From positions 1 through 64,000 of the forward strand of contig NZ_CANMJE010000006.1 of the NCBI RefSeq assembly GCF_947498095.1: a stretch of 64,000 nucleotides of DNA, read 5' to 3'. The DNA comes from an uncultured Shimia sp. (GTDB lineage: Bacteria > Pseudomonadota > Alphaproteobacteria > Rhodobacterales > Rhodobacteraceae). The notes beneath the pieces were generated by a model that searched no databases, had not been told where the DNA came from, and saw only the letters and a list, made by a program, of their open reading frames with translations. Positions 44,509 to 47,317 of this stretch are shown here, one piece after another; position 1 is the stretch's first letter, and every line of letters begins with the position of its first letter. The position numbers and the translations under genes were made by a program.

Positions 44509-45252
44509 TTGACGTCAAAGAAAGAGCTTCTCATGACCCTGCTAAAGGGCATTGAAACTGGCGATCCGGCCTCTGCTGCTGTGGTGAATGAAGACAAGTA
44601 CATCCAACACAATCCGCAAACTCATGAGGGCAGCGAGGGGCTGGCCGTACTTTTTGCCCGCCTCGCCAAGACCAAGCCCAAGGTCACATTCGTGCGCGTG
44701 TTTGAGGACGGTGATTTCGCCTTTGCTCATAACGAGTATGACTTTGCATCGCTGCGCGTGGCCTTTGAGGTGTTCCGGTTTGAGGACGGGCAGGCCGTAG
44801 AGCACTGGGACAATATTCAGCCCATGAAGGGGCCTAACCCCTCTGGGCGCACCATGTTGGGCGGCGCCACTGAGATCGCAGATGTCGACAAGACCGAAGC
44901 CAACCGGGAAGTGGTGCAGAACTATGTTCAACAGGTTCTGATATCGCGTGATTTCAGTCAGTTGCCGCGCTTTATTGATGCAGGCCTGATCCAGCATGCA
45001 CCGGACCTTGAAGATGGCTGTAAGGCCTTGCGTGGGTATCTCAGCGACACCGCTGTCCGCTATGAGCATCTGCATCGGGTGTTGGCCGAAGGGAACTTTG
45101 TTCTTGCCATGTGCGAAGGGACCCGGGGCGGCGTGCACAGCAGCTTTTATGACCTCTACCGCCTGCAAGACGGGCAGATCGTGGAGCACTGGGACACGGT
45201 TGAAGCCATCGCGCCCCGCAGTGAATGGAAGAACACCAACGGCAAGTTCTAA
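44509..45252 (+). CDS. Tandem SnoaL-like (NTF2-fold) protein
   Basis: From a TTG at 44509 with GGGAGG six bases upstream, 247 residues form two SnoaL-like halves. Each half has an IQH(N/A)P motif (YIQHNPQTHEG and LIQHAPDLEDG) and ends in a near-identical strand (FRFEDGQAVEHWDNIQP and YRLQDGQIVEHWDTVEA). This is an internal duplication in which one polypeptide supplies what is normally a dimer. SnoaL proteins include cyclases, isomerases and hydrolases; the substrate is unknown. An ATG eight codons downstream is an alternative start. Confidence 0.8.
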   Translation: MTSKKELLMTLLKGIETGDPASAAVVNEDKYIQHNPQTHEGSEGLAVLFARLAKTKPKVTFVRVFEDGDFAFAHNEYDFASLRVAFEVFRFEDGQAVEHWDNIQPMKGPNPSGRTMLGGATEIADVDKTEANREVVQNYVQQVLISRDFSQLPRFIDAGLIQHAPDLEDGCKALRGYLSDTAVRYEHLHRVLAEGNFVLAMCEGTRGGVHSSFYDLYRLQDGQIVEHWDTVEAIAPRSEWKNTNGKF

Positions 45253-45308
45253 GCGGAGGCCTGGCTCAGCGTGACCACGCCGTCACAGTTGCCAAGATCT
45301 GCACGTCA

Positions 45309-45326
45309 CCGTCTTGCCTAAGACGG
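45309..45326 (+). terminator. Short hairpin after the SnoaL gene
   Basis: A perfect seven-base stem (CCGTCTT / AAGACGG) with a GCCT loop is followed by TTTG. It is a modest terminator candidate separating the SnoaL gene from the yjhX leader. Confidence 0.45.
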
Positions 45327-45385
45327 TTTGTAGACCTACCTAGGTGTCACGTCTTCCGGGCCTACACGGAAGTGATGGAGATTTT

Positions 45386-45412
45386 ATGTTAGAGATTGCG
45401 GGCATCCGCTAG
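45386..45412 (+). CDS. Putative eight-codon leader peptide
   Basis: ATG with GGAG five bases upstream encodes MLEIAGIR and then TAG. The stop codon falls on the first arm of the AGGTCC/GGACCT hairpin, so a ribosome stalled on or near the stop would alter downstream folding. E. coli topAI-yjhQ is known to be controlled by a leader ORF that responds to ribosome-targeting antibiotics; this may be an analogous arrangement. At eight codons the coding evidence is only the ribosome site and context. Confidence 0.35.
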   Translation: MLEIAGIR

Positions 45413-45445
45413 GTCCCAATGTTTGGACCTGTTTCATTCCAAGAC

Positions 45446-45475
45446 CTTCCGCGCGTGACGCCGGAAGCTCTTTTT
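45446..45475 (+). terminator. Terminator hairpin in the yjhX leader
   Basis: CTTCCG, a bulged C, then GCG pair with CGC and CGGAAG around a TGA loop (nine base pairs), followed by CTCTTTTT. It lies 29 bases before the yjhX start codon, so it would act as an attenuator rather than end an upstream gene. Confidence 0.6.
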
Positions 45476-45503
45476 GTGCTGACATAAGTCTACGAGAAAA
45501 CCA

Positions 45504-45761
45504 ATGAACATCTCAAAAGTCGAGCAACGTGTTTTACACGTGCTGGCTCAGGGCGGCGCGATTCATTTTGAACGGCTGCCCAATGGAAAAGTGTCCGATG
45601 TGACCTGCTTTAACCGCGATCTCCACGTCCTGAGTGACTGCACGCTGGAGGTCTTTGAGCGTCTAAAGAAACGCCGCATGATCAGATCGGTTAGGGGGCA
45701 ACCTTACCGGGTTACAAAGCTGGGGATCACCTCGGTCAGAGCGCAACTCGATAACAGATAA
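45504..45761 (+). CDS. yjhX: YjhX/TopAI family protein (UPF0386), toxin-like topoisomerase I inhibitor
   Basis: The 85-residue protein MNISKVEQRVLHVLAQGGAI ends with YRVTKLGITSVRAQLDNR, the conserved frame of the UPF0386/YjhX family. E. coli YjhX (TopAI) inhibits DNA topoisomerase I and is neutralised by the GNAT protein YjhQ. A GNAT gene of matching size follows 11 bases downstream, the same order as in E. coli. Whether the alphaproteobacterial member is toxic is not known to me. The ribosome site is weak and a terminator-like hairpin precedes it, so basal expression may be low. Confidence 0.9.
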   Translation: MNISKVEQRVLHVLAQGGAIHFERLPNGKVSDVTCFNRDLHVLSDCTLEVFERLKKRRMIRSVRGQPYRVTKLGITSVRAQLDNR

Positions 45762-45772
45762 GAGTTTGAAAA

Positions 45773-46318
45773 ATGATGACAAATGCAACTTTACCAGCAG
45801 GCGCAATCCTGCGCGCAACCACGCATCAGGATCTCGATCAGGTCTTGGCGCTCTACCCACAAACCTTTCCTGAGGAAGAGCTGAGGCCGGTGGTTACGGC
45901 CCTAATGAGCGGCGACGATGACATCCTGTCCTTGGCGATTTCTTTTAAGGACGAGGTGATCGCCCATGTCATCTTTACCCTGTGCTCAGTGCAGCAATCG
46001 AGGCCTAAAGATGCGCTGTTAGGGCCGTTAGGCGTGATCCCATCCTATCAGGGCCAAGGTCTGGGCGGGATGATCGTCCGCGAGGGCATTGAACGTTTGG
46101 CGCAGGCCGGACTTAACCAGCTCTTTGTGCTTGGTGATCCGGGCTACTACGGTCGTTTCGGGTTTGACCCGGAACGTGCCGTAGTGCCGCCCTATGATCT
46201 GCCAGAGGACTGGAAAGATGCTTGGCAATCCTTGTTGCTGACGCCTGCGGCCAAACCGGGGGCTGGGCGACTGCAAGTACCAGACCCGTGGATACACCGT
46301 GACTTGTGGGTCGAGTGA
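45773..46318 (+). CDS. GNAT N-acetyltransferase (YjhQ-like partner)
   Basis: A 181-residue GNAT protein with the acetyl-CoA loop GPLGVIPSYQGQGLGGMIV (residues 84-102) and LFVLGDPGYYGRFGF, typical of the YhbS/YjhQ type. E. coli YjhQ, the proposed antidote of YjhX, is the same kind of protein and of similar length. The gene is 11 bases after yjhX, so the two are co-transcribed. An enzymatic role in modifying a small molecule or the toxin is equally possible. A hairpin terminator follows. Confidence 0.88.
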   Translation: MMTNATLPAGAILRATTHQDLDQVLALYPQTFPEEELRPVVTALMSGDDDILSLAISFKDEVIAHVIFTLCSVQQSRPKDALLGPLGVIPSYQGQGLGGMIVREGIERLAQAGLNQLFVLGDPGYYGRFGFDPERAVVPPYDLPEDWKDAWQSLLLTPAAKPGAGRLQVPDPWIHRDLWVE

Positions 46319-46369: not shown

Positions 46370-46591
46370 TCAGTCTAGCCACCCGACGGATTTTCTGGCG
46401 GCGACCTCGGCATCAGACTCGCTCTGATAGATCTGCCCGCTGTAATGCCCAATCGCAAACCAGCCGCGCCCGTCTTCGGGATCGCGGCGGAACTCTTCAA
46501 AGCCAAAACTGCCGTCCGGACGCTTGAAAATGTCCACGCAGACAGTTTCCCCGTCGAGGTTGATCGACTGCAGGACGGTGTTCTTGGTCAT
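46370..46591 (-). CDS. Small protein of unknown function
   Basis: A 73-residue soluble, acidic protein (MTKNTVLQSINLDGETVCVD, then GSFGFEEFRRDPEDGRGWF, ending AARKSVGWLD). The mix of aromatic, acidic and glycine residues and the tidy placement after a terminator look like a real small gene. I recall similar short proteins in Rhodobacteraceae but cannot name a family. Function unknown. Confidence 0.65.
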   Translation of the reverse strand: MTKNTVLQSINLDGETVCVDIFKRPDGSFGFEEFRRDPEDGRGWFAIGHYSGQIYQSESDAEVAARKSVGWLD

Positions 46592-46612: not shown

Positions 46613-47317
46613 TCAGTTGTCATACCCCGCGAGCGTGGTCATGAAGTCACCGAGCGGAAAGGTCACCGTCACGTGGGACAATTCTCCATCTTCCAATTCG
46701 TTCAAACGCAGCGCCACTTCGGTGTTGGCATGGTTGGGATAGCCCGAGAGCTCCATGAACTCATAGAGCGGCGTCAAGGCGCCAGTCCGAATACTTTGCG
46801 TTGCTCGTTGGCCGCAGATTTCGTCCTCAGAGTTTTGACCTTGTGACGCGATGTGACCAAAGCAAAAAGCAAATGCAGACACAATGGGGCCGCGCAGCCC
46901 TTCGTTGAAGGAATGGGTTTCACCTCCCTTTATGCGCTCAGCGATGGGTCGAAAATTCTGACACCCATTGCCGGTATCTTCGCAGAATCCAAAGTCCACT
47001 GGCGGGACAATGGTGCGGCCCGGATAGGTACCTGCGACATCCAGAATGGTCACGAATGCGACGCCCAATGTGCTCATCAACTCGAACTGATCGTCCGGGT
47101 CATTGGCGCGTTTGTCCACGAAAATGGCCATCAAAGCCATTTCCCCCGGCAACAGGCCTGGAGACTCGTAGAGCCAGCCTCTCAGGAATTCTACGCCCTC
47201 TCCCATGTAAATCGCCTCGCCGGTCCATTCTATCCAGCGGCGTTCTTGCGCGTTGCCTCCGGTGGCAAGGGTTAAGCAGAGGTACGTCGCCAGGACCAAT
47301 GAGAACAGGGATTTCAT
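46613..47317 (-). CDS. Secreted protein of unknown function
   Basis: From the ATG at 47317 (AAAGGT upstream) 234 residues start with a signal peptide (MKSLFSLVLATYLCLTLATG, cleavage after NAQ). The mature part contains GEMALMAIFVDKRANDPDDQ, several cysteines (FGFCEDTGNGCQNF, FCFGH, EICGQ) and a long C-terminal region. No family recognised. An in-frame start 36 codons upstream would put the signal peptide internally, so it is rejected. Confidence 0.7.
   Translation of the reverse strand: MKSLFSLVLATYLCLTLATGGNAQERRWIEWTGEAIYMGEGVEFLRGWLYESPGLLPGEMALMAIFVDKRANDPDDQFELMSTLGVAFVTILDVAGTYPGRTIVPPVDFGFCEDTGNGCQNFRPIAERIKGGETHSFNEGLRGPIVSAFAFCFGHIASQGQNSEDEICGQRATQSIRTGALTPLYEFMELSGYPNHANTEVALRLNELEDGELSHVTVTFPLGDFMTTLAGYDN

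What the first reader, a model, noticed from the sequence alone, without database searches (positions are those of the whole stretch)
45353..46318. YjhX-GNAT (topAI-yjhQ-like) locus with a leader ORF and switchable hairpins
The yjhX and GNAT genes match the order of E. coli topAI-yjhQ, an inhibitor of topoisomerase I and its partner. Upstream lies an eight-codon ORF with a good ribosome site. It is flanked by two hairpins with identical arms (CTTCCG/CGGAAG) that can pair across it, and the second ends in a T run 29 bases before yjhX. That is the architecture of ribosome-dependent attenuation. E. coli topAI is known to be controlled by a leader ORF that senses ribosome-targeting antibiotics. 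An intrinsic-terminator version in an alphaproteobacterium would be a distinct mechanism.
Basis: partly seen in the sequence, partly recalled or inferred. Interest (0 to 1): 0.75.

Follow-up and report, generated by a model that had tools for sequence, protein, structure and literature searches.

The report
toiL-type leader ahead of yjhX
A marine bacterium probably controls a topoisomerase-inhibitor gene with a tiny upstream reading frame that resembles the antibiotic-sensing toiL leader of E. coli; similar leaders precede this gene in many other Proteobacteria and in some genomes precede an acetyltransferase gene instead.

Summary
In detail: an eight-codon ORF (45386-45412, MLEIAGIR*) with a GGAG site lies 118 nt before yjhX, between hairpins with identical arms, the second followed by TTTTT. 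The ORF is conserved: a motif scan finds it in 148 of 176 yjhX loci, 0 of 176 in each of five shuffles. A matrix trained only on the window's family finds E. coli toiL (MLENVIIR*). So this is a toiL-type leader. Of ten pairs of leader segments only the ORF and the yjhX ribosome-site region pair beyond chance (57 of 145); the cross-pairing between the two identical-armed hairpins does not (8 of 142). Best reading: translation attenuation by ribosome stalling, as published for E. coli. But in the window the helix ends 3 nt before the yjhX SD, and its pairing is not significant alone (p 0.25-0.30). Hairpin plus T tract exceeds shuffles but is patchy (44 of 145 against 7-14); an added intrinsic terminator is possible, unproven. 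Unexpectedly, eight loci carry a similar uORF leader before a GNAT gene without intact yjhX between.

The parts
45314..45342 (+). putative promoter TTGCCT-17 nt-TACCTA; start of transcription predicted near 45349
   Evidence: A TTGNNN-17-NANNNN element lies 65-79 nt before the uORF in 23 of 24 window-group leaders (none found in L020); over all loci 46 of 144 have 8 or more of 12 consensus matches, 6.7 expected from shuffles. The window site itself matches only 6 of 12.
45353..45372 (+). P1: 5' hairpin just upstream of the uORF ribosome site (CTTCCG/CGGAAG, loop 8)
   Evidence: sequence, MFE; the equivalent helix covaries in class B (7 of 7 pairs with two-sided changes); not tested by covariation in the window group
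45377..45380 (+). GGAG ribosome-binding site of the uORF
   Evidence: invariant in the 24-sequence alignment
45386..45412 (+). uORF MLEIAGIR*, toiL-type leader ORF
   Evidence: E. coli MLENVIIR* at -139
45379..45392 (+). 5' strand of long-range helix P0 (uORF SD end, start codon and into codon 3)
   Evidence: MFE pairs it with 45479-45491; pairing between uORF and RBS region enriched across loci
45398..45409 (+). P2: small hairpin GCGG-GCAT-CCGC at the end of the uORF
   Evidence: 89.6% of cells paired, 1 of 4 pairs with two-sided changes
45410..45431 (+). P3: hairpin directly after the uORF
   Evidence: 95.8% of cells paired, 2 of 5 pairs with two-sided changes
45446..45475 (+). P4: hairpin CTTCCG...CGGAAG followed by CTCTTTTT; terminator-like
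   Evidence: stem covaries (5 of 6 pairs with two-sided changes); hairpin plus T tract enriched but patchy
45479..45491 (+). 3' strand of P0, ending just before the yjhX SD
45494..45497 (+). GAGA, probable SD of yjhX
   Evidence: sequence; inference
45504..45761 (+). yjhX/topAI homologue, 85 aa
   Evidence: PF09857 E 5.8e-37; 51% identical to E. coli TopAI
45773..46318 (+). GNAT acetyltransferase, yjhQ homologue, 181 aa
   Evidence: PF00583; 39% identity to E. coli YjhQ over 127 aa

Best explanation
The stretch from about 45349 to 45503 is a toiL-type attenuator. A transcript starting near 45349 carries the eight-codon ORF MLEIAGIR. When ribosomes translate it freely they leave quickly, and the SD-to-codon-3 region of the ORF (45379-45392) pairs with 45479-45491, just before the yjhX ribosome site, hindering initiation on yjhX and thus expression of yjhX-GNAT. 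When a ribosome is held on the early codons (antibiotic or other translation stress), that helix cannot form, the yjhX site stays open and the operon is expressed. Shown here: the conserved uORF, its match to E. coli toiL, enriched uORF-RBS complementarity across loci, and that in the fold model a ribosome on codons 1-6 removes the helix. Inferred: the inducing drugs, the repressed ground state, the promoter, and how strongly the helix blocks initiation in this species. The P4 hairpin with its T run may add some transcription termination.
For: uORF motif in 148 of 176 yjhX loci, shuffles 0 of 176 five times. A matrix trained on 67 loci of the window family scores above 8 in 12 of 16 loci outside the training set, among them E. 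coli toiL (13.1) and Janthinobacterium (14.7); 2 of 2419 background short ORFs exceed 8. uORF-RBS duplex p<=0.05 in 65 of 145, 6 of 145 for a coding control segment; it is the only one of ten segment pairs enriched (57 of 145; the others 4 to 11). Own partners beat permuted partners (mean -25.4 against -22.2, sd 0.29, 2000 permutations). Blocking the uORF start lowers the cost of opening the yjhX RBS by 2 kcal/mol or more in 103 of 145, blocking the uORF stop in 77, P1 in 5, the middle of the leader in 39. Window: 13.2 expected P0 pairs when free, 0-0.1 with a ribosome on codons 1-6, 2.4 on codon 7 and 4.5 on codon 8. The named structures covary as a whole. E. coli precedent: toiL translation needed for induction, SHAPE and stalling data (PMC12121999, sections 7, 8, 10 and part of 11 seen).
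Against: The window's own uORF-RBS duplex is not significant alone (p 0.25; 0.30), and blocking the uORF start lowers its RBS opening cost only from 4.03 to 3.69 kcal/mol (E. coli 10.2 to 6.45). In the window group the drop reaches 2 kcal/mol in only 10 of 24, and the segment test gives 6 of 24; P0 lies at -25 to -13, short of the SD. P0 itself covaries weakly: 70.5% of cells paired in alignment A1 with two of its 11 pairs broken in 15-16 of 24; in class B it is 96.3% paired but nearly invariant. Class C pairing is weak (3 of 19; 2 of 19). Four of 16 out-of-family loci did not reach score 8. Nothing about expression or drug response was measured.
Confidence: 0.66

Rival explanations
1. Transcription attenuation at an intrinsic terminator: P4 with its T run stops RNA polymerase near 45475 unless a stalled ribosome lets an antiterminator form, the P1 3' arm pairing with the P4 5' arm.
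For: Hairpin with 9 bp, one bulge and TTTTT. A hairpin plus at least 5 T in 8 occurs between -95 and -12 of yjhX in 44 of 145 loci (11, 14, 10, 7 and 11 in five shuffles), with at least 6 T in 18 (0-2 in shuffles). By eye, some leaders before GNAT genes keep a hairpin with TTTTT (L214, L215) though uORF-RBS pairing there is weak (2 of 8).
Against: P1-P4 pairing not enriched (8 of 142, mean z -0.07), nor any other segment with P4. 14 of 24 window-group leaders lack the element by the same criterion while keeping the uORF. In the MFE part of the T tract (TCTT 45469-45472) pairs with AAGA 45441-45444, so it may be kept as a stem.
Confidence: 0.15
2. Both act: translation attenuation through P0 plus a constitutive, partial terminator at P4 that keeps basal expression of the inhibitor low, without ribosome-controlled switching.
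For: Hairpin plus T tract is enriched but patchy, and uORF-RBS is the only enriched long-range pairing.
Against: Termination was not measured; the T tract is short.
Confidence: 0.12
3. The uORF is conserved only because its RNA pairs with the RBS region; the peptide has no role and no specific stall is sensed.
For: Codon 3 is GAG in 122 of 153 and GAA in 3, and codon 4 ends in T in 122 of 148; the class C ORF has only 5 codons (MSELV*).
Against: Codon 5 varies synonymously (GTG 41, GTC 20, GTA 14, GTT 9) and keeps V or A in 123 of 148; in E. coli tylosin stalls at Val5 (PMC12121999 section 10). The predicted pairing register shifts between classes while the first five residues stay alike.
Confidence: 0.1

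Closest known systems
E. coli toiL-topAI-yjhQP leader (Baniulyte and Wade 2025, PMC12121999)
   Same: Eight-codon uORF with a matching peptide, 118 against 139 nt upstream; the same first two genes with an 11-nt gap; predicted pairing of the uORF with the yjhX/topAI ribosome-site region.
   Different: Window P0 covers uORF -7 to +6 and yjhX -25 to -13, next to the SD; the E. coli prediction runs over most of the ORF and over the SD and start codon. P4 carries a T run. yjhP does not follow. The peptide has Ala5 where E. coli has Val5.
Macrolide-inducible erm leaders (ermC type; recalled, and named in PMC12121999)
   Same: Ribosome stalling on a short uORF exposes the downstream ribosome site.
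   Different: Different regulated gene; no sequence or structure relation was tested.
Amino-acid biosynthesis attenuators such as trp and his (recalled)
   Same: Short ORF followed by a terminator-like hairpin.
   Different: No run of one amino acid's codons in MLEIAGIR, and no enriched antiterminator pairing.

Membership tests
toiL-topAI leader | TopAI/YjhX gene as first gene of the regulated operon | tested here: met
   PF09857 E 5.8e-37; 51% identity to TopAI
toiL-topAI leader | YjhQ GNAT directly downstream | tested here: met
   39% identity over 127 aa, both 181 aa; 11-nt gap. Across loci a GNAT like the window's follows in only 40 of 171
toiL-topAI leader | short uORF with toiL-like peptide upstream | tested here: met
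   MLEIAGIR against MLENVIIR (5 of 8 residues)
toiL-topAI leader | uORF pairs with the topAI ribosome-site region | tested here: met
   Met for the set of loci: 65 of 145, 6 of 145 for the control. For the window alone: in the MFE but p 0.25-0.30
toiL-topAI leader | pairing occludes the SD itself | tested here: inconclusive
   P0 ends at 45491, before GAGA 45494-45497; RBS opening cost 4.03 kcal/mol, 10.2 in E. coli
toiL-topAI leader | induction by ribosome-targeting antibiotics through uORF stalling | not testable with these tools
   needs reporters
toiL-topAI leader | Rho-dependent termination inside topAI | not testable with these tools
   needs RNA data
toiL-topAI leader | third gene yjhP (methyltransferase) | tested here: not met
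   the next ORFs taken as genes lie on the minus strand (46370-46591, 46613-47317) and have no Pfam match; not a requirement of the leader itself
uORF-controlled intrinsic-terminator attenuator | terminator hairpin with U tract before the gene | tested here: inconclusive
   present in the window; 44 of 145 loci, 7-14 in shuffles; 10 of 24 in the window group
uORF-controlled intrinsic-terminator attenuator | conserved alternative (antiterminator) pairing with the terminator | tested here: not met
   P1-P4 8 of 142, uORF-P4 4 of 142, after-uORF-P4 9 of 142 at p<=0.05

The most novel reading that the evidence does not exclude
The toiL-type leader is an old ribosome-stall sensor spread among Proteobacteria that is a module separate from TopAI. 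It also drives stand-alone GNAT acetyltransferase genes (uORF MSTIAGNR and the like); its pairing register and stall codons have been retuned by lineage (for example Ala5 for Val5, which could add chloramphenicol-type stalls); and in some lineages including the window it has gained an intrinsic terminator, so that transcription is attenuated as well as translation.
Probability: 0.3. Interest if true: 0.74.

Novelty: new variant of a known kind. Interest (0 to 1): 0.58.

Why it matters
By its authors' account toiL is among few bacterial uORFs that sense several unrelated ribosome-targeting drugs (PMC12121999, discussion). The loci gathered here show such leaders before yjhX in many Alphaproteobacteria, in a Janthinobacterium and in E. 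coli, with natural variation in peptide length (5 to 10 codons, 8 in 88 of 148), codon 5 and pairing register. That variation makes it testable which codons sense which drug. The leaders before GNAT genes without an intact yjhX suggest that translation stress may switch on an acetyltransferase directly, and the yjhX genes with no adjoining ORF (39 of 145) question a simple toxin-antitoxin reading.

Tried and rejected
Hairpin-arm switch: P1-P4 complementarity tested on 142 of 145 non-redundant loci, not enriched. Rfam: no family at gathering threshold in the whole window; with permissive settings one sub-threshold sR44 hit (13.1 bits, gathering 45, E 0.66) in 45250-45560, and nothing in the E. 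coli stretch given. E. coli leader with my model R1: no match at E<=1, so the link to toiL rests on the uORF, gene order and pairing logic, not on a shared hairpin profile. Partner swapping alone is confounded by G+C, so shuffle and coding-segment controls were added. The long-range helix in leaders before GNAT genes was tested on 8 loci and is weak (2 of 8 at p<=0.05). Solved structures: no relative of YjhX at E below 0.77; the 152-aa GNAT resembles 2r7h, a putative D-alanine N-acetyltransferase, E 3e-16. No structure prediction was run.

Rows dropped before counts: of 191 loci, 177 had distinct upstream stretches; 176 had at least 200 nt upstream and 169 any candidate ORF; 153 scored above 3 and 145 remained after removing near-duplicates. 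Three loci had too short a P4 stretch (142). In one search four loci were too short to judge the downstream gene. L220 (G222, model positions 25-108 only, 25 bits) I treated as a chance match. Weak model matches in L221 (E 0.076) and L235 (E 0.0015) were not followed up. Alignments A1 and A5 hold 24 window-group leaders that I picked by hand for similarity; A2 holds 18 and A6 16 of the 21 class B leaders; A3 (class C) was aligned but not counted. Classes A-D were assigned by peptide and ribosome-site rules. (149 family genomes, 13 with a match to R1) came before the larger.

Papers: PMC12121999, outline, sections 7, 8 and 10, part 1 of 2 of section 11, and found passages; [quoted passage not shown] PMC4666372: passages only. 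PMC7815308: passages only. Other papers: search listings only. I noticed no paper on this leader in Rhodobacterales, or before a GNAT gene, in those listings; the library lacks most subscription journals and preprints. erm and trp/his leaders are recalled.

Full report
What is there. YjhX is PF09857 and 51% identical to E. coli TopAI; the GNAT is 39% identical to YjhQ over 127 aa. yjhX is patchy: 4 of 25 genomes of the genus, 67 of 394 of the family sample, 16 of 289 of the class sample, 39 of 398 of the phylum sample.

The leader ORF is a toiL counterpart. Upstream stretches of 177 distinct yjhX loci were compared. E. coli K-12 has MLENVIIR* at -139; the window has MLEIAGIR* at -118; others have MLEIAVIR, MSTIAARR, MLELVTTR, MSELV*, MQETRA* and the like. 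A leave-one-out matrix (-14 to +15 around the ATG) scores above 8 in 148 of 176 loci, and in 0 of 176 in each of five dinucleotide shuffles. Trained only on 67 loci of the window family, it scores above 8 in 12 of 16 loci outside the training set: E. coli 13.1, two other MLENVII leaders 15.8 and 13.5, Janthinobacterium 14.7; the four that fail are L008, L093, L161 and L158. Of 2419 other short ORFs in the same loci 2 exceed 8, one of them MLEIVAR in L158, which may be a real uORF further upstream. Not all loci fit: 21 of 169 score 8 or less, several with variants ending in ETR or SQTR, and 7 of 176 have no candidate. Codon 5 keeps V or A in 123 of 148 with free third bases, which suggests selection on the peptide; codon 4 ends in T in 122 of 148. 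In E. coli the stalling reporters place tylosin at Val5 and tetracycline and retapamulin at the start codon (PMC12121999 section 10). E. coli toiL has no Ala, Ser or Thr codon and does not respond to chloramphenicol (same paper); 137 of 148 uORFs here have such a residue after Met1, 114 at position 3 or later, so a wider drug range is a testable guess.

Which parts pair. The MFE of 45349-45530 pairs 45379-45392 (uORF SD end into codon 3) with 45479-45491, enclosing P2, P3 and P4; the fold is moderately better than shuffles (z -1.98). Across 145 non-redundant loci the uORF pairs with the 32 nt before yjhX better than shuffles at p<=0.05 in 65, 6 for a coding control segment. Of ten pairs of five leader segments only uORF with RBS is enriched: 57 of 145 with mean z -1.37, the others 4 to 11. 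The window group alone gives 6 of 24 and class C 2 of 19, and the window itself is not significant (p 0.25 and 0.30). P3 and P4 covary, P2 weakly; the named structure is paired in 82.3% of cells, at most 47.7% when slid (class B 92.3% and 45.0%). The long-range helix itself shows few two-sided changes (4 of 11 pairs in A1, 1 of 9 in class B), so its support comes mainly from the shuffle and swap tests.

What a ribosome on the uORF would do. Holding a ribosome at the uORF start lowers the cost of opening the yjhX ribosome site by at least 2 kcal/mol in 103 of 145 loci, at the stop in 77; blocking P1 does so in 5 and blocking the middle of the leader in 39. In E. coli the cost falls from 10.2 to 6.45; in the window only from 4.03 to 3.69, because its helix sits at -25 to -13 and stops before the SD. 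In the window the helix vanishes for a ribosome on codons 1-6 and partly returns on codons 7-8; in E. coli it stays near zero throughout. So if the window leader works this way it should respond best to early stalls, and the block may act by hindering 30S binding beside the SD rather than by burying it. This step is inferred.

The terminator question. A hairpin plus at least 5 T in 8 occurs between -95 and -12 in 44 of 145 loci (11, 14, 10, 7 and 11 in five shuffles); with 6 T, in 18 (0-2 in shuffles). The window is among them, but 14 of 24 in its group are not. The consensus scan did not list it. An intrinsic terminator at 45475 remains possible as an added brake.

Promoter. A TTGNNN-17-NANNNN element lies 65-79 nt before the uORF in 23 of 24 window-group leaders, always with a 17-nt spacer although 16 and 18 were allowed; over all loci 46 of 144 have at least 8 of 12 matches, 6.7 expected. 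In the window it is TTGCCT-17-TACCTA at 45314-45342 (6 of 12 only), placing the start near 45349, just before P1, so the transcript should include the whole leader.

Beyond yjhX. A covariance model from 24 window-group leaders (R1) matched 5 of 25 genomes of the genus; one of these, G013, has no yjhX. In the family sample it matched 27 places in 26 of 394 genomes: 20 adjoin a yjhX and I fetched the other seven. Five of the seven, plus G013, show the leader followed by a GNAT gene of about 150 aa with no yjhX between (L209, L214, L215, L216, L218, L219); one (L217) has a partial, apparently decayed yjhX; one (L220) looks like a chance match. G333 and G411 have a yjhX with its own leader elsewhere (L018, L019). 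The uORFs are MFTIAGNR, MPTIAGHR, MFTIAGNR, MSTIAGNR, MSTIAGNR, MSTIAGNR. A search with the GNAT of L214 found it in 16 of 198 genomes: 4 behind uORF plus yjhX, 4 behind a uORF without intact yjhX (two of them new: L223 MFAIAGKR, L229 MLETAGTL) and 8 with neither by my criterion. That makes eight such loci in eight genomes. The same GNAT family follows yjhX in L019 (55% identity to G013's). Some may be relics of operons that lost yjhX (L229 seems by eye to hold a remnant), but the near-identical uORFs argue for continued use. Pairing with the GNAT ribosome site is weak there (2 of 8 at p<=0.05), and blocking the uORF start eases opening of the site in only 3 of 8, so how they would act is open.

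Partner gene. Of 145 non-redundant loci, 102 have an ORF of at least 90 aa starting from 25 nt before to 120 nt after the yjhX stop, 39 have none, and 4 were too short. Of the 102, 57 match Pfam Acetyltransf_1 and 57 Acetyltransf_7 (union not counted). The leader-yjhX pair is thus more constant than yjhX-GNAT.

Verdict. The finding is a real toiL-type leader. Its class is known from E. coli; what the calls add is its spread and variation, the shifted helix with a terminator-like hairpin in this group, and its occurrence before GNAT genes.

Noticed in passing
L209:2513-2647 (-), L214:1001-1130, L215:2001-2133 (-), L216:2001-2125 (-), L218:1001-1124, L219:1001-1119; also L223 and L229: toiL-type uORF leaders stand before a GNAT acetyltransferase gene of about 150 aa without an intact yjhX between.
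   Followed up: partly
39 of 145 non-redundant yjhX loci: No ORF of 90 aa or more starts directly downstream of yjhX, so no adjoining antitoxin candidate, although the leader is kept.
   Followed up: partly
uORF codon 4, 148 loci: Codon 4 ends in T in 122 of 148 (ATT, CTT, ACT, AAT, CGT and others); not explained by the P0 helix in the window.
   Followed up: no
L217 1141-1227; L229 upstream of the GNAT: Apparent decayed remnants of yjhX between the leader and the next gene (L217 by tblastn; L229 by eye).
   Followed up: no
L098, L099, L106, L107, L110, L115, L118, L121: A second uORF type ending in ETR, SQTR, AQTR or ETRR, partly low-scoring in my matrix.
   Followed up: no
window 44536-45252: The gene upstream of the leader matches SnoaL_2 (PF12680) in two stretches, like a tandem duplication.
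   Followed up: no
window 46370-46591 (-) and 46613-47317 (-): Two small minus-strand ORFs downstream of the GNAT without any Pfam match at E 0.001.
   Followed up: no
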